A DNA stretch of 26,492 nucleotides, from IMG/VR virus record IMGVR_UViG_3300017726_000068, positions 1 through 26,492 of that record; one strand, 5' to 3'. The notes beneath the pieces are model-generated. The model saw nothing but the letters and a program-made list of their open reading frames with translations. It made no database searches and was not told where the DNA came from. Of the stretch, positions 1 to 26,492 are shown piece after piece (the first letter of the stretch is position 1; each line of letters begins with the position of its first letter). The DNA comes from a virus. Made by a program: the position numbers and the translations under genes.

Positions 1-125
1 CACACGGGGGAGCTTTCATTTTTCTTACGCAAAATTAAATCTAAATCGTGTGGGTATAGATATACCAAACTAAAACCAGTTTAAGTTCAGTATGTTAGTT
101 GTAATATGGCCAAGCTAAAAATAAA
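1..125. other. Left genome end, putative cos-flanking and terminase-binding region
   Basis: This non-coding leader precedes the small terminase gene. Seen in sequence: the first 11 bases contain CACGGGGGA, which recurs at 26463-26471 near the right end. CACACG at 1-6 is the inverse complement of CGTGTG at 47-52. GGTATA-GA-TATACC at 53-66 is a perfect 6-bp inverted repeat. AAACT at 67-71 pairs with AGTTT at 78-82 across a 6-nt loop. Dyad-rich DNA beside terS, with an HNH gene near the other end, is the normal setting of a cos site, so this may be where the terminase binds. That role is inferred. I see no TAnnTTTG promoter here. Confidence 0.5.
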
Positions 126-599
126 ATGAGAGGGAGAAAAAAAATGCCAACAAAAGTAAAGGAGCTAAAAGGCACACTAGAGAAATCCAGATTGGTGGGA
201 AATGAAATGGAAACTTCTCAAGTTGTTAGTATGCCTTCAGCTCCCTCCTTTCTCAATAAACAAGGCGCAGACGAATGGGACTTAGTCACTAATGAACTAG
301 CTAATATAAAGATGTTACACTTGACAGACTTATCAATCTTAGCAGCGTACTGCAATGAGATAGGTATTTACCGAGAGATAGCTCAAGAGTTACAAGGCAA
401 CTTTACCGAGCAGACCGTTGACAAAGATGGTCGGTTGAGGTCTAGTAAGATTGCACCTAAGTACAAGGTAATGCAAAACGCTTTACAAAACGCTATGAAA
501 ATTGCTACGCAATTTGGATTCACTCCAAGCTCAAGAGCATCTCTTAGTATGCCAGAGCAAGATGAGGAAAGGACTGACGATTTTAACTTCTTTGACTAA
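126..599 (+). CDS. terS: Terminase small subunit, P27 family
   Basis: The 157-residue protein is the DNA-recognition subunit of the packaging motor. It should bind near the genome end and hand DNA to the large subunit. The N-terminus MRGRKKMPTKVKELKG matches the conserved opening of P27-family small terminases (GRKPxPxxLKxLxG). This favours the ATG at 126 over the in-frame ATG at 144, which would cut the motif. The rest is helical and charged (WDLVTNEL near residue 51, then LTDLSILAAYCNEI near 66-79), as in the family. The acidic C-terminal tail is also usual. The stop at 597-599 overlaps the following ATG by one base. The leader is A-rich with no clear Shine-Dalgarno site. Confidence 0.88.
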   Translation: MRGRKKMPTKVKELKGTLEKSRLVGNEMETSQVVSMPSAPSFLNKQGADEWDLVTNELANIKMLHLTDLSILAAYCNEIGIYREIAQELQGNFTEQTVDKDGRLRSSKIAPKYKVMQNALQNAMKIATQFGFTPSSRASLSMPEQDEERTDDFNFFD

Positions 600-1366
600 T
601 GATTGACTTATATAACGGAGATTGTTTAGAGGTAATGAAATCTATTAAAGATAATAGTATTGATGCTATAATTACAGACCCACCATACGGAACGACAGCG
701 TGTAAATGGGATAATGAAATTCCTTTTGAAGAAATGTGGGAACAATTAAATAGAATAATAAAACCTAACGGTGCTATAGTTTTATTTGGTAGTGAGCCGT
801 TTAGTAGTGCTTTAAGAATGAGCAATATTAATAACTTCAAATATGACTGGATATGGGAAAAATCAATGCCTACTGGAATGGCTCAAAATTCATATATGCC
901 TATGAAGTACCACGAAATAATAAGCGTATTTGTAAATAAAAGCAAACCAACTTTTAACAAACAATTAGCTGAAAGAAACAAAACCAGCTTATTGAGGGCT
1001 AAATATAAAATACAAGGAAGTCCAAATAAATCGAATCACATAAATATAGGAAAAAGAGAACCTACCTATTATGATAATACAAAAGTAAATCCTAAAACAG
1101 TATTAAAATTTAAAAGTGTACCTAACACTCCCAAAGGAAGTAAAAAACACCCAACACAAAAACCTGTAGCTTTAATGGAGTATCTCATCAAAACTTATAC
1201 AAACGAAAACGAAACAGTATTAGATTTTACTATGGGTAGTGGAACAACTGGAGTGGCTTGTAAAAATTTGAATAGAAATTTTATAGGGATAGAAAAAAAT
1301 AAAAACTATTTTGATATAGCTAGTACAAGAATCAAAGAACATCAATCTCAACTTAGGCTAATATGA
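599..1366 (+). CDS. DNA methyltransferase 1 (N4/N6 type, motif order IV then I)
   Basis: This 255-residue protein should transfer a methyl group from S-adenosylmethionine to an exocyclic base amine. DPPYG at residues 27-31 is catalytic motif IV, and DFTMGSGTTG from 209 is the SAM-binding motif I. Having IV before I marks the beta-type arrangement with the target-recognition region between them. THPTQKP-like residues (KHPTQKPVALMEYL) just before motif I are typical of this family. The gene lies between terS and terL, an unusual place for a methyltransferase. It overlaps terS by 1 nt and the next methyltransferase by 4 nt (ATGA). Its last 38 nt nearly duplicate the end of that neighbour. The target base and site cannot be read from the sequence. 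Self-protection against restriction is the likely use. Confidence 0.85.
   Translation: MIDLYNGDCLEVMKSIKDNSIDAIITDPPYGTTACKWDNEIPFEEMWEQLNRIIKPNGAIVLFGSEPFSSALRMSNINNFKYDWIWEKSMPTGMAQNSYMPMKYHEIISVFVNKSKPTFNKQLAERNKTSLLRAKYKIQGSPNKSNHINIGKREPTYYDNTKVNPKTVLKFKSVPNTPKGSKKHPTQKPVALMEYLIKTYTNENETVLDFTMGSGTTGVACKNLNRNFIGIEKNKNYFDIASTRIKEHQSQLRLI
1329..1366 (+). repeat. Direct repeat copy 1, at the 3' end of methyltransferase 1
   Basis: This 38-nt stretch matches 1979-2016 at 36 of 38 positions, including 25 consecutive identical bases (1329-1353 and 1979-2003). It encodes the shared C-terminal residues RIKEHQSQL and runs through the ATGA stop/start overlap. The rest of the two genes is much less alike. 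Confidence 0.9.
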
Positions 1367-2016
1367 TAAACATTTACAATCAAGATTGTTTAGAAGCTAT
1401 GAAGTCAATGCAAGACAATCAATTCGACTTGGCGATAGTAGACCCACCTTATGGAATAGGTATAAGTGGACAAAAAGAAGTTAAAAAAAAAAGAGTTCAA
1501 AGAAATAGAAGTTCAGCACAAAACAGAAAATATCATAAAGAAAAAAAATGGGATAACGATATTCCAACAAAAGAATATTTTACAGAATTGCAAAGGGTTT
1601 CAATAAATCAGATAATATGGGGAGCTAACTACTTTGTTAAACATATCAACAAAGGAACAAAAGGTTGGATTATTTGGGATAAACAACAAAAGGGTTTATG
1701 GAGTTCTGATGCAGAAATAGCATATAGCAGCTACAATAAACCTACAAGAATATTTTTGCAAAATAGAATTATTTTACAGCAAGAGGGTGGTACAATACAC
1801 CCAACACAAAAGCCAGTTAAGTTATACAAATGGCTTTTAATGAACTACGCAAAGGAAGGTGATAAGATACTAGACACGCATTTAGGCAGTGGTTCAATAG
1901 CTATTGCTTGTCATAATCTAGGATATGACTTAGAAGGTTATGAGTTAGATAAGGGGTATTATGATAATGCTTTAAAACGAATCAAAGAACATCAATCTCA
2001 ACTAAAGCTAATATGA
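1363..2016 (+). CDS. DNA methyltransferase 2 (N4/N6 type)
   Basis: This 217-residue methyltransferase is a relative of the preceding gene. DPPYGIG at residues 27-33 is motif IV, at exactly the same position as in methyltransferase 1. DTHLGSGS (about 170-177) is motif I, preceded by the HPTQKPVKLYKWLL block typical of the family. The central region is lysine-rich and differs from that of methyltransferase 1, suggesting a different recognition sequence. FGGAN/WGANYF-type residues are visible as NQIIWGANYF. It overlaps both neighbours by 4 nt, so the terS-MTase-MTase-terL block is probably translated as one coupled message. Target site unknown. An anti-restriction role is inferred. Confidence 0.83.
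   Translation: MINIYNQDCLEAMKSMQDNQFDLAIVDPPYGIGISGQKEVKKKRVQRNRSSAQNRKYHKEKKWDNDIPTKEYFTELQRVSINQIIWGANYFVKHINKGTKGWIIWDKQQKGLWSSDAEIAYSSYNKPTRIFLQNRIILQQEGGTIHPTQKPVKLYKWLLMNYAKEGDKILDTHLGSGSIAIACHNLGYDLEGYELDKGYYDNALKRIKEHQSQLKLI
1979..2016 (+). repeat. Direct repeat copy 2, at the 3' end of methyltransferase 2
   Basis: Partner of the repeat at 1329-1366, with 36 of 38 identical bases. It abuts the terL start, so each methyltransferase cassette ends in the same sequence. A deletion or exchange between the two copies would remove exactly one methyltransferase and keep the ATGA junction intact. Confidence 0.9.
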
Positions 2017-18442: not shown

Positions 18443-18860
18443 ATCAGTTAAACAAGCAGGGGATTTTGAATCTCAATACGGACACTTTTACAAGTGGCTA
18501 TTAGAATTTGAAGATGGATTTAAGGGCGAGTACCTATCCAAGACAGAAACTCAAAACAAATTTATAGAAGGACAAACAGCTTTAATAGAAGTAACGACAA
18601 GAGACTATAACGGTACTAAAATTAATAAGATAAAACCAGCATCAACGTTTCAAGGTGGAGGCAAAAGCTATACACCACTTCCAAAGGACAATAAGACTCA
18701 AGAGTATATTATCAAGCAAAACGCATTGACAAACGCTTGTAATATAGTCGGAGAGGCTGATATACCTAAGATAATAGAAATAGCTGACGCATTCAAAGAA
18801 TACGTTTTAAATGATGTAAAACCAAAATCAACAAACAATGGCACAGACTTACCTTTTTAG
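18426..18860 (+). CDS. Putative single-stranded DNA-binding protein
   Basis: The 144-residue protein ends in NGTDLPF, very close to the acidic-hydrophobic tip (DDDLPF) with which bacterial SSBs recruit partner proteins. The first 80 residues read as beta strands that could form an OB-like barrel (FYKWLLEFEDGFKGEYLSK, GQTALIEVTTRDYNGTKINKI). Residues 95-130 are helical. The early-operon setting, ahead of DnaA-like and helicase genes, supports a replication role. No closer family match can be made by eye, so the call rests on the tip, length and context. Confidence 0.6.
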   Translation: MEKVVKSVKQAGDFESQYGHFYKWLLEFEDGFKGEYLSKTETQNKFIEGQTALIEVTTRDYNGTKINKIKPASTFQGGGKSYTPLPKDNKTQEYIIKQNALTNACNIVGEADIPKIIEIADAFKEYVLNDVKPKSTNNGTDLPF

Positions 18861-19107
18861 TAAACAATCACGTGACGCAGTATATGACCACGACACTAGC
18901 TACTGTTTTAAATTAAGACGTGGCAAAGGATGGTTACATTTAAACAAGAAAGCAACAGAGCTAATAGAACACGATGACCACTTTGAGCTTAGACTAGCTG
19001 ATTGGTACATAAATGTAGGAGATAAATTTGTCTCACAAACAATAATAAGACAAGAGCAGTGTCAAGAGCTTCAAGAATGGTATTACAAAATAAAAGTAAA
19101 TGAATAA
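18838..19107 (+). CDS. 89-residue early protein, unknown
   Basis: Its start lies within the last codons of the SSB-like gene, a 23-nt out-of-frame overlap. It has many aromatic and charged residues (YCFKLRRGKGWLHLNKKAT, DHFELRLADWYINVGDKFVS) and looks like a small beta-rich fold, with a final helix (EQCQELQEWYYKIK). No family recognised. The tight overlap with both neighbours (8 nt with the next gene) argues that it is translated. Confidence 0.6.
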   Translation: MAQTYLFSKQSRDAVYDHDTSYCFKLRRGKGWLHLNKKATELIEHDDHFELRLADWYINVGDKFVSQTIIRQEQCQELQEWYYKIKVNE

Positions 19108-19540: not shown

Positions 19541-19721
19541 AAGTCAAAATTCTATTACAAGCTGGGATGCTATAATGGAATATGGTATAACTAGATTATC
19601 TCATCATATTTATTGTCTTAGAAATGATGGATATATAATACCAGATGAAAGAATAAAAGTAAAGACAAGACTAGGAAGAGAAACTAATATATCTAAATAC
19701 ACTTTAAGAGATGCAGTATAA
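19494..19721 (+). CDS. Helix-turn-helix protein (HTH_39-like)
   Basis: This 75-residue protein matches the small winged-helix family found in many phages: LTQKQQVLNHLKSQNSITSWDAI, then MEYGITRLSHHIYCLRNDGY, where the second is the recognition helix, and a wing near IKVKTRLGRET. It probably binds DNA as a regulator in the early operon. Target unknown. It starts inside the DnaA-like gene and overlaps the following helicase gene by 11 nt. Confidence 0.72.
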   Translation: MKTKLTQKQQVLNHLKSQNSITSWDAIMEYGITRLSHHIYCLRNDGYIIPDERIKVKTRLGRETNISKYTLRDAV

Positions 19722-21891
19722 AGAATTTTTAAAAACAAAAGAAAAAAACTTTATATCGAGTGGATTTAAAGTTAAAGATAAAGATTTAAATATAAATTTA
19801 TTTGACTTTCAAAAGCATATATTAAAAATAGCATTAGATAAAGGTAGATTTGCAATATTTGCAGACTGTGGCTTAGGAAAAACATTAATGCAATTAAGCT
19901 GGGCAGAATGTATATTTAAAAAAACAAATAAAAAAGTTTTAATATTAGCTCCTTTAGCTGTTGTAAATCAAACTAAAAATGAAGCATCAAAGTTTAACAT
20001 AAATGTTGATAGTTTTGATATATATAATTTTGAACAATTAAAAAACATTGACATATCAATTTATGCTGGTATTGTATTAGATGAATCATCTATTTTAAAA
20101 GGTAGAGATGGTAAATTGAGCAGATTAATTATAGATAGCTTTATAAATACTCCATATAAGTTATGTTGTACTGCTACACCTTCTCCAAATGACCATATGG
20201 AACTTGGACAGCATTCTGAATTTTTAGGGTCTATGAGTTATTTAGAAATGTTAGCTATGTTTTTTGTTCACGATGGAGGAGAAACTTCAAAATGGAGATT
20301 AAGGAAACACGCTCAAGATGATTTCTGGAACTTTGTATGTACTTGGTCAATATCTTTAGACAATCCAAAGTCTTTAGGATTTAAAGGAGATGGATATAAT
20401 TTGCCAGACATAGAATATATAGAGCATATTATTCCAGTAGAAAATAATACTAATACTTTATTTGGTGATGTTGCAGTTTCTGCTACTGATTTACATAAAG
20501 ATTTAAAAAGGTCTTTAAATAAAAGAATTGATAAAACCATCGAGCTGGTAAATAGTTCTAATGAACAATGGATAATATGGACCTTAAAAAATGATGAAGC
20601 AAATCAACTTAATAAAGTTATCAATGATAGTATAAATGTTCAAGGTAGTGATAAACCAGAATATAAAGCTAAATATTTAAATGGTTTTGCCAATAAAGAA
20701 TTTAAATCATTAATAACAAAAACAAGTATAGCTTCTTTTGGAATGAATTATCAGAATTGTTTTAATATGATTTTCACTTCTTATGATTTCAAATTTGAAG
20801 CATTTTATCAAGCAGTAAGAAGATGTTATAGATTTGGTCAAAAAAATAAAGTTAAAGTACATTTATTAGTGCCACAAAGTCAAATAAATGTTAGAAAGAC
20901 TATTCTAGAAAAAGAAAATAAACATAAAACAATGATAAAAGAAATGAGTAATTATAGCAGTAAAACTGATTATAAACTAAACAAAACAAACATTATTATT
21001 AATAACAAAGAAATTAAAACTAACAATTACCATTTATTTAATGGAGATTGTGTAGAGGAATCAAAGAAAATAAATACTAATGAAGCTGATTTAGTAGTTT
21101 TTAGTCCTCCATTTGCTGAATTATATGTTTATTCTGATAAACCAGAAGATATGGGAAATGTAAAGAATTATAAAGAATTTGAAAATCATTTTAAATATTT
21201 AATACCACAAATAAAAAGAGTTTTAAAGCCTGGCAGAATATGCGCTATACATTGTATGGATTTACCTATTCAAAAAGGTAAAGAAGGATATATTGGTTTG
21301 AGAGATTTCTCTGGAATGTTAATCGAATGGTTTACTAATGAGGGTTTTATATATCACGCTAAAACTACTATATGGAAAAATCCAGTAACTGAAATGCAAA
21401 GAACTAAAGCATTAGGACTATTACATAAAACAATAAAAAAAGATAGCGTGATGTCAAGAGTTGGAATACCAGATTATGTATTATTTTTTAGAAATGAAGG
21501 AGATAATTTATTACCAATACAACATCAAGATGAATCTGAAAGTTTACCCAATTATTTGCCAGTTGACTTATGGCAAAAGTATGCTTCTCCAGTATGGAAT
21601 GATGTTGATTATAGTAGAACTTTACAATACAGAAGTGGTAGAGATGGTAATGATGAAAAGCATATATGTCCATTACAATTAGATACAATTGAAAGAATTA
21701 TACATTTATATTCAAATGAAAATGAAGTTGTTTTTTCTCCTTTTGGTGGTATTGGTTCTGAGGGATTTCAAGCTATAACAATGAACAGAAAAAGCATATC
21801 AATTGAATTAAAAGAAAGCTATTTTAAATTAAATGCTAAAAATCATAGAGATGTAGATAATGAAAAAAAATCTACTTTAACATTATTTTAA
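19711..21891 (+). CDS. SNF2-type helicase fused to an N4/N6 DNA methyltransferase
   Basis: This 726-residue two-part protein starts with an SF2/SNF2-type ATPase: CGLGKT (53-58) is Walker A, DESS (124-127) replaces the DExH box, TATP (154-157) is motif III, and QAVRRCYRFGQ from residue 367 is motif VI. Residues 440-726 are a methyltransferase with SPPFAELY (motif IV, 465-472) and SPFGGIGSEGF (motif I, 676-686), again IV before I. The first position of motif IV is Ser rather than Asp or Asn, as in one cytosine-N4 branch. The whole gene is visibly more AT-rich than its neighbours. It could act in phage DNA modification, or at forks as a remodelling enzyme. The target is unknown. Confidence 0.85.
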   Translation: MQYKEFLKTKEKNFISSGFKVKDKDLNINLFDFQKHILKIALDKGRFAIFADCGLGKTLMQLSWAECIFKKTNKKVLILAPLAVVNQTKNEASKFNINVDSFDIYNFEQLKNIDISIYAGIVLDESSILKGRDGKLSRLIIDSFINTPYKLCCTATPSPNDHMELGQHSEFLGSMSYLEMLAMFFVHDGGETSKWRLRKHAQDDFWNFVCTWSISLDNPKSLGFKGDGYNLPDIEYIEHIIPVENNTNTLFGDVAVSATDLHKDLKRSLNKRIDKTIELVNSSNEQWIIWTLKNDEANQLNKVINDSINVQGSDKPEYKAKYLNGFANKEFKSLITKTSIASFGMNYQNCFNMIFTSYDFKFEAFYQAVRRCYRFGQKNKVKVHLLVPQSQINVRKTILEKENKHKTMIKEMSNYSSKTDYKLNKTNIIINNKEIKTNNYHLFNGDCVEESKKINTNEADLVVFSPPFAELYVYSDKPEDMGNVKNYKEFENHFKYLIPQIKRVLKPGRICAIHCMDLPIQKGKEGYIGLRDFSGMLIEWFTNEGFIYHAKTTIWKNPVTEMQRTKALGLLHKTIKKDSVMSRVGIPDYVLFFRNEGDNLLPIQHQDESESLPNYLPVDLWQKYASPVWNDVDYSRTLQYRSGRDGNDEKHICPLQLDTIERIIHLYSNENEVVFSPFGGIGSEGFQAITMNRKSISIELKESYFKLNAKNHRDVDNEKKSTLTLF

Positions 21892-22595
21892 TGAAAAGAA
21901 TAAGAGTAGAGAAGTCAAAGAACTTTACCACAATCAACAATGAGTTCATCTTTAACAAGAACTTGTCTTTAAAAGCTAAGGGGTTGCTGTGTCACCTATT
22001 GGCTTTACCTAACGATTGGAAGCTTTATGTTGAGGAGGTTGAGAAATGGAGTACAGATGGCAAATCTGCTATCTACTCAGCGTTTAAAGAGCTGACATCT
22101 AATGGCTATATGAAACGAGAGCAAAAACGTAAAAAAGGTAAGATAGTTTCTTGGGATTATATAGTCTTTGAGAAACCACATACCGATTTTCAAGAAGTAG
22201 AAAATCAAGATTTAGAAATTCTAGATGTTGAAAATCGACCACTACTAAATACTAATAATACTAAATACTTAAATAAACTAAATACTAATAATACTAAAAC
22301 AGAGAGGGATTATCCTTTTGAATTAAATTCAGATGCTTGGAATTTATGGAAAGAATTTAGGAAAGAGCAGTTTAGAACTACCTACAAACCACTAGGAGAA
22401 TCTGCTGCTATTTCTAAGCTATTAAGAATCTCCAACAACAACAAAGAACACCAGGCGCAAATTATCCAGCAGTCTATAGAAAATGGATGGAAGGGATTGT
22501 TTGAGCTTAAAACAGAAAAACAAACTAAAGTCCAAAAGATATTAAGCAACTATCATAAAGGACTAGAAATGATAAACAAAGAACACAATGACTAA
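21891..22595 (+). CDS. Replication initiation protein, winged-helix plus DnaD-like
   Basis: This 234-residue protein fits the phage replication-protein plan. Residues 1-90 are a winged helix (NNEFIFNKNLSLKAKGLLCH, STDGKSAIYSAFKELTSNGY). Residues about 119-137 are a low-complexity Asn/Thr/Lys linker encoded by AT-rich repeats. Residues 140-215 are a helical part with DAWNLWKEFRKEQ and WKGLFEL, like the C-terminal domain of DnaD/DnaB2 proteins. It would melt the origin and recruit the host helicase. It starts at the stop of the helicase gene (TAATG). Similar in layout to lambda O, whose gene also holds the origin. Confidence 0.72.
   Translation: MKRIRVEKSKNFTTINNEFIFNKNLSLKAKGLLCHLLALPNDWKLYVEEVEKWSTDGKSAIYSAFKELTSNGYMKREQKRKKGKIVSWDYIVFEKPHTDFQEVENQDLEILDVENRPLLNTNNTKYLNKLNTNNTKTERDYPFELNSDAWNLWKEFRKEQFRTTYKPLGESAAISKLLRISNNNKEHQAQIIQQSIENGWKGLFELKTEKQTKVQKILSNYHKGLEMINKEHND
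22244..22298 (+). repeat. AT-rich iterons in the replication gene, candidate origin
   Basis: Two exact 22-nt repeats at 22244-22265 and 22277-22298 are offset by 33 nt. Within them the 8-mer AATACTAA occurs four times (22248, 22257, 22281, 22290) with a fifth variant, AATACTTA, at 22264. No G occurs in the whole 55-nt stretch. Iterons inside the linker of the initiator gene are the lambda O arrangement, so this is the best origin candidate in the window. Confidence 0.6.
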
Positions 22596-22836: not shown

Positions 22837-22993
22837 TTATTTAGATATAAAAGAGCGCAAAGACGTTACAGTAAAAAATATGTTTAAGATATATAAGACT
22901 GATAACAAATATCGTAACAGAATAACTTGGGATGCACATTATTTGATAACTGGGTGGAAACACATACAACAAACTAAAGATGACAAAAAATAA
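22829..22993 (+). CDS. 54-residue protein, unknown
   Basis: This short ORF runs MIDYLDIKERKDVTVKNMFK to HIQQTKDDKK. It overlaps the genes on both sides by 8 and 14 nt and fills what would otherwise be a gap of about 140 nt, so it is probably real. Basic, with tryptophans near TWDAHYLITGW. No family recognised. Confidence 0.55.
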   Translation: MIDYLDIKERKDVTVKNMFKIYKTDNKYRNRITWDAHYLITGWKHIQQTKDDKK

Positions 22994-23399
22994 GACTAAT
23001 CAAGTTTGGTATCTATACGCAAACGACATTAAAGAACTTAAGAGACAATGCTATGACGTTATATCTACTCTTTATGTTCAGCTAGGACAAGCTCCAGAAG
23101 CTGAGATAATAGTACAGATGACTAACTTATTTTGTAATGACTTGGCTACCAACTATGGCTCAATGGAATTAGATGAGGTTAGATTTGCCTTAAATAAACA
23201 CATAAGAGAGAATGACGGACCACACTTTGTTAATGTTCCAACGTGGAATGAAGCTCTTAGAAGTTACAAGATGTCAAAAGCACTTAAAAGACAGACTAAT
23301 CAAATAGACCAATATGAAGTCTATAAAAAGAGAGTAGAGTCTTTTAGCAAGGTAATAGATAAAAGAGAGATAAAAAAAATAGGAAAAAGTGAATTATAA
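22980..23399 (+). CDS. 139-residue early protein, possible replication accessory factor
   Basis: Two parts are visible: a helical N-terminal half (NDIKELKRQCYDVISTLYVQ, AEIIVQMTNLFCNDL, MELDEVRFALNKHIREN), then a loop with PTWNEALRSYKMSKALKRQ. A helical bundle with a basic C-terminus fits a helicase loader or DNA-binding accessory protein, but no catalytic motif is present and I do not recognise the family. It overlaps the next gene by 11 nt. Confidence 0.55.
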   Translation: MTKNKTNQVWYLYANDIKELKRQCYDVISTLYVQLGQAPEAEIIVQMTNLFCNDLATNYGSMELDEVRFALNKHIRENDGPHFVNVPTWNEALRSYKMSKALKRQTNQIDQYEVYKKRVESFSKVIDKREIKKIGKSEL

Positions 23400-24015
23400 A
23401 GTCAAATCAATAAAATCAGAAGTCTGTAAAGATTGGCTATTAAATAAACATTATGCCAAAAGACAATGTAGTATTTCTTTTTCATTTGGTTTATTTGATA
23501 ATAAAATATTAATAGGTATTTTAACAATAGGTAAACCAGCTTCAAATCCTTTATGTATAGGAGTATGTGGTAAAGAAAATACTCAATTTGTTTACGAATT
23601 AAATAGACTATGCGTAAATGATAATTTACCAAAAAATACACTTTCTTTCTTTGTAAGTCAATGCTTAAAGATGCTCCCAAAAATGATTCTAGTTAGTTAT
23701 GCAGATACTTCTATGAACCATAACGGTTACATATATCAAGCTACTAACTGGATTTATACTGGTAAAACAAAAGAGAGAACAGACATAGGAAAAGAAAATG
23801 GAAAGCATAGCAGACACTATGATAAGACAATAGATTACAAATTGAATAGAATTTTTAGAAGTTCTAAACATAGATACATTTACTTTTTGGGAAGTAAAAA
23901 AGATAAAAGGTTATTTAAGCAATCTTTAAAATATCAAGTATTAAGTTACCCAAAAGGACAAAATAAAAGATACGATTCAAGTTATAAACCAACAATTCAG
24001 ACTGAACTATTTTAA
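23389..24015 (+). CDS. mom: Mom-like DNA-adenine modification enzyme (GNAT fold)
   Basis: This 208-residue protein matches the Mom family, which in phage Mu converts adenine to a methylcarbamoyl (acetamido-type) derivative that blocks many restriction enzymes. Visible family blocks: KHYAKR (20-25), FGLFDNKILIGILTIGKPAS (33-52), YELNRLCVNDNLPKN (69-83), SYADTS with GYIYQATNWIYTGKT (103-127), and HSRHYDKTIDY. The start is GTG at 23389, inside the preceding gene's end; the conserved N-terminus needs it. Base composition is much more AT-rich than the genes before and after. It sits in the early or middle operon, so the modification could be ready before packaging. Substrate and site are not proven. 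Confidence 0.72.
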   Translation: MNYKVKSIKSEVCKDWLLNKHYAKRQCSISFSFGLFDNKILIGILTIGKPASNPLCIGVCGKENTQFVYELNRLCVNDNLPKNTLSFFVSQCLKMLPKMILVSYADTSMNHNGYIYQATNWIYTGKTKERTDIGKENGKHSRHYDKTIDYKLNRIFRSSKHRYIYFLGSKKDKRLFKQSLKYQVLSYPKGQNKRYDSSYKPTIQTELF

Positions 24016-24410
24016 TGCCCATAACAATAAGTAAACTAAAGAAAAAGCTAGACAAAGTATTTAGCGAGTACATTAGAAAGCGTGATAGCGATTATAAAGG
24101 TAATTGCAAGTGTATTAGTTGTGGTAAAGAATATCCAGCTTTTGGAGGTAGTACTCACGCTGGTCATCTATTTTCTAGACGTTACCTTAGCATAAGATAT
24201 GATGAGAAAAATGTTAATAGCCAGTGTTCGTATTGTAATACTTTTCTTAATGGGAATCAGCTCTTAGCAGCTAGAGGAGTAGAAAATAAATGGGGTAAGG
24301 GTACAGTAGACGAGTTAGAAAGTAGAATGCATATAGTAGTAAAATTAACAAGAACTGATTATGAAGAAGCAATCGAAAGGTATAAACAAAAGATTAGAGA
24401 GCTGGATTAA
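24015..24410 (+). CDS. ninG: NinG/Rap-like recombination endonuclease
   Basis: This 131-residue protein resembles lambda NinG (Rap), a Holliday-junction and D-loop endonuclease. The first 25 residues form a basic helix (ISKLKKKLDKVFSEYIRKRD). Then come C31, C33 and C36 (CKCISCG), the HAGHLFSRRYLSIRYDEKNV segment with His48 and His51, and C72/C75 (CSYC): together a zinc-binding HNH-like core. The C-terminal helix matches family members. In this window it lies between the Mom-like gene and small unknown genes, so it is likely used in phage recombination. Confidence 0.8.
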   Translation: MPITISKLKKKLDKVFSEYIRKRDSDYKGNCKCISCGKEYPAFGGSTHAGHLFSRRYLSIRYDEKNVNSQCSYCNTFLNGNQLLAARGVENKWGKGTVDELESRMHIVVKLTRTDYEEAIERYKQKIRELD

Positions 24411-26443: not shown

Positions 26444-26492
26444 CGAGTATGTAAGTACATCGCACGGGGGACCTTCTCTCCTCTTTCCTCTC
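26444..26492. other. Right genome end with G5 repeat and pyrimidine tract, putative cos side
   Basis: No gene is present. CACGGGGGA occurs at 26463-26471, matching 3-11 at the left end. It is followed by a 20-nt stretch of C and T only (26473-26492). If the two ends join, the two copies lie 32 nt apart in the same orientation. This fits a cos/terminase recognition site. A sequence-assembly edge remains possible. Confidence 0.5.

What the first reader, a model, noticed from the sequence alone, without database searches (positions are those of the whole stretch)
23389..24015. Mom-like DNA-adenine hypermodification gene in a flavobacterial-type phage
The protein keeps the Mom family's main blocks, including ELNRL, SYADTS and GxIYQATNWIYTG. 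Mom from phage Mu makes adenines resistant to many restriction enzymes. Here it lies next to ninG and starts at GTG within the preceding gene; unlike Mu, no com gene is obvious. It gives this phage a fourth DNA modification function.
Basis: partly seen in the sequence, partly recalled or inferred. Interest (0 to 1): 0.63.

Follow-up and report, generated by a model that had tools for sequence, protein, structure and literature searches.

The report
Phage Mom enzyme with clamp-binding tail
The gene is an ordinary member of the Mom family of phage DNA-modifying enzymes, but it and several unrelated phage DNA-modification enzymes end in the same short signal that bacterial proteins use to hold on to the replication clamp, which suggests these phages modify their DNA as the host machinery copies it.

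Summary
The 208-aa GTG-start ORF at 23389-24015 is a full-length Mom protein (Pfam PF25680 E=9e-37, PHROG 1384 E=3e-65). Its best PDB fold match is phage Mu Mom (8bv8), and Mu's S124, mutated in that 'inactive' structure, is S86 here.

New here: the protein ends in QTELF. Across its subfamily the last five residues read Q-x-x-[L/I]-F (26 distinct DNA versions; Q in all, F in 25), the bacterial beta-clamp (DnaN) binding pentapeptide. The same ending occurs on unrelated phage modification enzymes: N6/N4 and C5 methyltransferases and a glucosyltransferase. In ten isolated phages chosen beforehand, 10 of 26 modification genes have it and 0 of 521 other ORFs. None of 58 flavobacterial chromosomal methyltransferase ORFs has it, yet the DnaE polymerase there carries QVSLF/QISMF in 13 of 13. 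The gene sits in a slot beside ninG; in close relatives 23 occupied slots all hold modification genes and 27 are empty.

Best reading: a Mom-type adenine modifier tethered to the host clamp. Clamp binding and the chemistry are inferred, not shown.

The parts
23389..24015 (+). mom gene, 208 aa, GTG start
   Evidence: PF25680 E=9.4e-37; PHROG 1384 E=2.7e-65; PDB 8bv8 by sequence and by fold
23449..23454 (+). H21-Y22, invariant in the Mom alignment including Mu
23644..23646 (+). S86, equivalent of Mu S124 (the residue mutated in the 'inactive mutant' structure 8bv8)
   Evidence: 38 of 40 rows
23695..23706 (+). SYAD block, residues 103-106; S103 and D106 invariant
23998..24012 (+). C-terminal QTELF (residues 204-208), putative beta-clamp-binding peptide
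   Evidence: disordered in the AlphaFold2 model, pLDDT below 50 at 205-208
22980..23399 (+). upstream backbone gene of unknown function, left flank of the variable slot
24015..24410 (+). ninG-like gene, right flank of the variable slot
   Evidence: PF05766 E=6e-19
599..1366 (+). N6/N4 DNA methyltransferase, ends QLRLI (near-variant of the tail)
   Evidence: PF01555 E=6e-40
1363..2016 (+). N6/N4 DNA methyltransferase, ends QLKLI; 55 of 90 members of its viral family end in strict QxxLF
   Evidence: PF01555 E=6e-16
19711..21891 (+). SNF2-type helicase fused to N6/N4 methyltransferase, ends TLTLF (no Q)

Best explanation
It is a Mom-family DNA-adenine modification enzyme of a small tailed phage, probably of Bacteroidota. 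The GNAT-fold domain (residues 1 to about 190) makes a Mom-type modification on adenine that blocks restriction enzymes. The flexible C-terminal tail ends in QTELF, a beta-clamp-binding peptide, which tethers the enzyme to the host sliding clamp DnaN, so that new phage DNA is modified as the host polymerase makes it, before host restriction can act. The gene was swapped in as a cassette in a slot between two early genes that in close relatives holds only DNA-modification genes. Shown: family, fold, conserved catalytic serine, tail conservation, its near-restriction to phage modification enzymes, the same motif in host-family DnaE, and the cassette. Inferred: clamp binding, timing at the fork, the exact base product, the host.
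For: Mom family and fold. Tail: positions 1, 4 and 5 fixed while 2 and 3 vary over 26 distinct DNA tails; matches the published clamp consensus QL(S/D)LF (PMC9690074); a Mom subclade carries the motif at the N-terminus instead. Sharing by unrelated modification enzymes; test on genomes named beforehand 10/26 against 0/521. Chromosomal methyltransferase ORFs of Flavobacteriaceae 0/58. DnaE of Flavobacteriaceae QVSLF/QISMF 13/13; Pol IV ends QLKFEF-type. Disordered tail. Slot: 23 occupied, all modification genes; 27 empty. Precedent: T4 alpha-glucosyltransferase binds the T4 clamp (PMC13216743).
Against: No binding or activity data. Mu Mom and about half of the Mom relatives sampled lack the C-terminal motif. 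In T4 the clamp contact was not the main determinant of modification level. The window's other three modification enzymes have only near-variants. Dependence on the host polymerase could not be correlated with the tail on fragmentary contigs.
Confidence: 0.62

Rival explanations
1. Ordinary Mom only: the enzyme modifies adenine as in Mu, and the shared QxxLF ending is a recombination footprint (a conserved 3' junction next to ninG) without protein function.
For: Within the slot, cassettes of different families end with similar DNA just before ninG, for example ACTGAACTATTTTAATGCC, which could serve as microhomology.
Against: The same peptide is written by 26 different DNA tails and occurs in Mom genes that do not lie next to ninG; it is found in phages of other hosts, including Streptococcus; slot-resident long C5 methyltransferases next to ninG do not have it; one subclade has it at the N-terminus.
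Confidence: 0.1
2. The tail is a docking peptide, but for another partner (another replisome protein, a phage protein, or a protease or chaperone), not the sliding clamp.
For: Short C-terminal peptides serve many adaptors; the consensus here tolerates T, K or A at position 2, looser than QL(S/D)LF.
Against: The pattern fits the published clamp pentapeptide; variants in MAGs of other phyla (SQLILGI, TQMVLEL) resemble the hexapeptide clamp form; host-family DnaE has QVSLF.
Confidence: 0.2
3. A Mom-fold enzyme with a different chemistry: it transfers another acyl group or acts on another target, and is not a methylcarbamoyl-adenine maker.
For: Identity to Mu Mom is only about 24%, and other acyl donors have been proposed for the family (PMC7824862).
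Against: H21, Y22, G48, E70, R73, S103, D106, G113, Y116 and H140 are invariant including Mu, and S86 matches Mu S124.
Confidence: 0.25

Closest known systems
Mom of bacteriophage Mu (Pfam PF25680; PDB 8bv8)
   Same: Full-length domain match, same fold, catalytic serine and main invariant residues; GTG start in both (for Mu)
   Different: About 24% identity; no com gene and no start-codon hairpin; QTELF tail that Mu Mom lacks (it ends FKVQPYPK)
Mom-like DNA modification proteins of phages (PHROG 1384), e.g. Acinetobacter phage JeffCo, Listeria phage A511
   Same: 50-62% identity over residues 2-196
   Different: The isolated-phage homologues listed align only to about residue 200; JeffCo has a different tail (NTGEIFYQ)
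T4 alpha-glucosyltransferase bound to gp45 (PMC13216743)
   Same: A phage DNA-modification enzyme that binds a sliding clamp
   Different: The phage's own clamp, a different enzyme fold; here the host clamp is inferred and binding is untested
Plasmid methyltransferases M.EcoGIX / M.BceJIII associated with Pol I (PMC7736820)
   Same: Anti-restriction modification tied to replication proteins
   Different: Partner is Pol I on single-stranded DNA; no clamp peptide reported
Bacterial beta-clamp-binding proteins (Pol III alpha, Pol IV, transposases)
   Same: Pentapeptide pattern; host-family DnaE carries QVSLF
   Different: Those are polymerases, repair proteins or transposases, not DNA-modification enzymes

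Membership tests
Mom DNA-modification family | Matches the curated profile above its cut-off over its length | tested here: met
   PF25680 127 bits against 27.1, profile positions 2-202 of 202
Mom DNA-modification family | Same fold as the solved Mu Mom | tested here: met
   8bv8 best Foldseek hit, TM 0.71, other GNATs at or below 0.50
Mom DNA-modification family | Catalytic serine (Mu S124) and family invariants | tested here: met
   S86 aligned with Mu S124; ten invariant residues
Mom DNA-modification family | Makes N6-(carbamoylmethyl)adenine in DNA | not testable with these tools
   Needs LC-MS
Mom operon of Mu type | com gene and start-codon hairpin upstream | tested here: not met
   No com-like ORF; RNA fold z=0.25. 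Not a defining trait of the protein family
NCBIfam XF1762 family | Score above the curated cut-off | tested here: not met
   24.5 bits against 50
Bacterial beta-clamp-binding proteins | QL(S/D)LF-like pentapeptide in a flexible terminus | tested here: met
   QTELF at the C-terminus, predicted disordered; consensus from PMC9690074
Bacterial beta-clamp-binding proteins | Motif conserved under protein-level selection | tested here: met
   26 distinct DNA tails; positions 1, 4, 5 fixed, 2 and 3 variable
Bacterial beta-clamp-binding proteins | Clamp partners of the presumed host group use the same peptide | tested here: met
   DnaE QVSLF/QISMF 13/13; host group itself is inferred
Bacterial beta-clamp-binding proteins | Physical binding to DnaN | not testable with these tools
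   No complex modelling or binding assay available

The most novel reading that the evidence does not exclude
Phages that depend on the host replisome widely fit unrelated DNA-modification enzymes (Mom, N6/N4 and C5 methyltransferases, a TET-associated glucosyltransferase) with a terminal peptide that docks on the host sliding clamp. Anti-restriction modification would then be coupled to host-driven replication, with the peptide gained convergently at the C- or N-terminus and such genes exchanged among phages as cassettes.
Probability: 0.6. Interest if true: 0.75.

Novelty: new variant of a known kind. Interest (0 to 1): 0.58.

Why it matters
It is an open question how a phage modifies all its DNA fast enough to escape restriction while the host polymerase is still copying it. 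A clamp-docking tail shared by enzymes of unrelated folds, and absent from the chromosomal methyltransferases sampled, would be a general and directly testable answer. It would also give a simple sequence mark for finding unknown phage DNA-modification genes.

Tried and rejected
Com gene and Mu-like hairpin: not found. XF1762 family: below cut-off. Tail as a DNA recombination footprint: rejected as the main account. Link between the tail and lack of a phage DNA polymerase: inconclusive; no family A polymerase above the cut-off in either group, and the contigs are fragments. N-terminal motif as a general mark: loose N-terminal matches are background (12 of 521 other ORFs, 0 of 26 modification genes), so only the conserved N-terminal QKSLF of one Mom subclade is used. 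Nearest isolated phage by whole DNA: no match. Literature: all 10 searches used, open-access library only; no report of clamp motifs on phage methyltransferases or on Mom was found; two look-ups of Mu Mom papers by a remembered DOI found nothing held.

Full report
1. The observation. The ORF at 23389-24015 (+) starts with GTG, encodes 208 aa and contains the quoted blocks. It overlaps the upstream ORF by 11 nt and the ninG start by 1 nt. Pfam Mom (PF25680) matches over the whole protein with E=9.4e-37, PHROG 1384 'Mom-like DNA modification protein' with E=2.7e-65, and the only PDB sequence hit is 8bv8, 'Methylcarbamoylase mom'. An AlphaFold2 model (mean pLDDT 84.9) has 8bv8, the Mu Mom S124A structure, as its best PDB fold match (TM 0.71; other GNATs at or below 0.50). 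In a 40-member alignment S86 corresponds to Mu S124 (38/40), and H21, Y22, G48, E70, R73, S103, D106, G113, Y116 and H140 are invariant. Relatives lie in 265 deposited phage records, many already annotated Mom-like. In 395 genomes of the class of a Winogradskyella MAG, a Mom above cut-off occurs once, in that MAG itself, so this is essentially a phage gene.

2. The surroundings. Three backbone genes (the upstream ORF 22980-23399, ninG, and the replication gene 21891-22595) were used to fetch related viral contigs. Between the upstream ORF and ninG lies a variable slot. In 27 distinct close relatives the two genes abut or nearly so. In 23 others a cassette sits there: a Mom in 3 (this one; L171, about 50% identical; L183, a distant Mom confirmed by Pfam) and C5-type cytosine methyltransferases of three kinds in 20 (one member of each checked against Pfam PF00145; the rest assigned by reading the sequences). 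No other gene class was seen there in close relatives; more distant relatives (upstream ORF below 46% identity) carry further genes. The junctions are clean: empty ...AAAAAGATAGGCA|ATGCC..., and here ...AAATAGG[AAAAAGTGAATT...CTATTTTA]ATGCC... A second site just after the replication gene carries Mom (L006, 70% identical although flanking genes are 79-91% identical) or an N6 methyltransferase (L116, L163). The gene is therefore a swappable cassette, and its GTG start inside the neighbour is part of the cassette edge.

3. The tail. The protein ends ...YKPTIQTELF. In relatives the end is Q-x-x-[L/I]-F while the residues between drift. Over 26 distinct DNA tails: Q 26/26, position 2 six residue kinds, position 3 ten, position 4 L/I 26/26, position 5 F 25/26. 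This fits the bacterial beta-clamp pentapeptide (consensus QL(S/D)LF; PMC9690074). A subclade without it carries M-QK[ST]LF-ENE or MQQNLFENE at the N-terminus instead (7 members). Mom homologues in MAGs assigned to other phyla end TQTTLF, TQGVLF, SQLILGI and TQMVLEL; the last two resemble the hexapeptide form of the clamp motif (own knowledge, for example E. coli Pol IV QLVLGL).

4. It is shared by unrelated modification enzymes and by little else. In the discovery set (1877 unique ORF products, 466 sequence clusters) exact C-terminal Q-x-x-[LIM]-F occurs in 70 proteins in six clusters: Mom 35/71, N6/N4 methyltransferases 16/33, short C5 methyltransferases 14/18, helicase-associated methyltransferases 3/9, a family that looks methyltransferase-like but has no Pfam match 1/4, and one unknown 115-aa ORF. 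Ten isolated, annotated phage genomes were then named in the notebook before looking. The motif within two residues of the C-terminus is in 10 of 26 annotated modification genes and 0 of 521 other ORFs (Fisher p=9e-15). The positives include a Streptococcus phage methyltransferase (QIKLF) and the TET-associated glucosyltransferase of Nonlabens phage P12024L (QLEIF; PF20691). Many positives are homologous, so the p-value is overstated; the number of unrelated folds (GNAT, N6/N4 and C5 methyltransferase families, glycosyltransferase) is the safer argument. In a second viral set (1050 further proteins) N6 methyltransferases have it in 55/90 and C5 methyltransferases in 52/66; outside them it occurs in one winged-helix family (7/10), one PAPS-reductase-like protein and one Mom fragment. 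As a control, 0 of 58 chromosomal ORFs matching the N6/N4 or C5 methyltransferase models in Flavobacteriaceae genomes carry it; some of these N6/N4 hits are below the curated cut-off, so that half of the control is weaker.

5. The presumed host side. In 13 of 13 Flavobacteriaceae DnaE polymerases there is a conserved QVSLF or QISMF at one alignment position, and Pol IV ends in QLKFEF-type hexapeptides. The clamp of this bacterial family is thus expected to bind such peptides. The Mom tail is predicted disordered (residues 205-208 pLDDT below 50), as a docking peptide should be. No unassigned ORF in the window is large enough for a replicative DNA polymerase, so replication by the host polymerase and clamp is likely (inference).

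6. Mechanism. Most likely the enzyme rides on host DnaN and modifies adenines in newly made phage DNA. Shown: family, fold, catalytic serine, tail conservation, occurrence on phage modification enzymes, cassette. Inferred: clamp binding, timing at the fork, identity of the modification, host. Precedents exist: T4 alpha-glucosyltransferase co-purifies with the T4 clamp gp45, although the clamp contact was not the main determinant of modification level (PMC13216743); plasmid methyltransferases associate with Pol I (PMC7736820); Dnmt1 binds PCNA (PMC9690074). A host-clamp tail shared by several kinds of phage modification enzyme was not found in the literature searched, but that library holds open-access papers only, so novelty is not established.

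7. Weak points. There are no binding data. Mu Mom and many Mom proteins lack the tail. The link to dependence on the host polymerase could not be tested on fragmentary contigs. The window's own two simple methyltransferases end in near-variants (QLRLI, QLKLI) and its helicase-methyltransferase in TLTLF, not the strict motif. The host is presumed to be Bacteroidota from methyltransferase similarity only.

Noticed in passing
window 18838-19107 (+): Small early protein beginning MAQTYLFSKQ; the N-terminal QTYLF is kept in about 14 relatives. It may be another clamp binder.
   Followed up: partly
window 24015-24410 and L083, L155, L158, L191: The ninG-like gene comes in two alleles only about 52% identical although the flanking genes are 90% or more identical, as if swapped as a unit.
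   Followed up: no
L288:1039-1410: A 123-aa winged-helix-like protein family ends QLTIFD or QLSIFE in 7 of 10 members; function unknown.
   Followed up: partly
L273:711-1505: PAPS-reductase-like phage protein ends QLNLF; it could be a further, sulfur-based DNA modification enzyme.
   Followed up: no
L237:17279-18037 (Nonlabens phage P12024L): TET-associated glucosyltransferase (PF20691) ends QLEIF, a fourth unrelated fold with the tail.
   Followed up: partly
window 19711-21891: Helicase and methyltransferase are one ORF here, while in relatives such as L083 and L135 they are two adjacent ORFs, the second ending EQKELF or EQKEIF.
   Followed up: no
L027:2169-2813 and L027:3953-4642: In one contig the C5 methyltransferase ends QLTIL and the Mom ends QLSIL, the same departure from QxxLF in two unrelated enzymes.
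   Followed up: no
window 3-11 and 26463-26471: The string CACGGGGGA occurs close to both ends of the 26.5-kb record, and some related contigs have nearly the same length; it may mark a packaging end.
   Followed up: no
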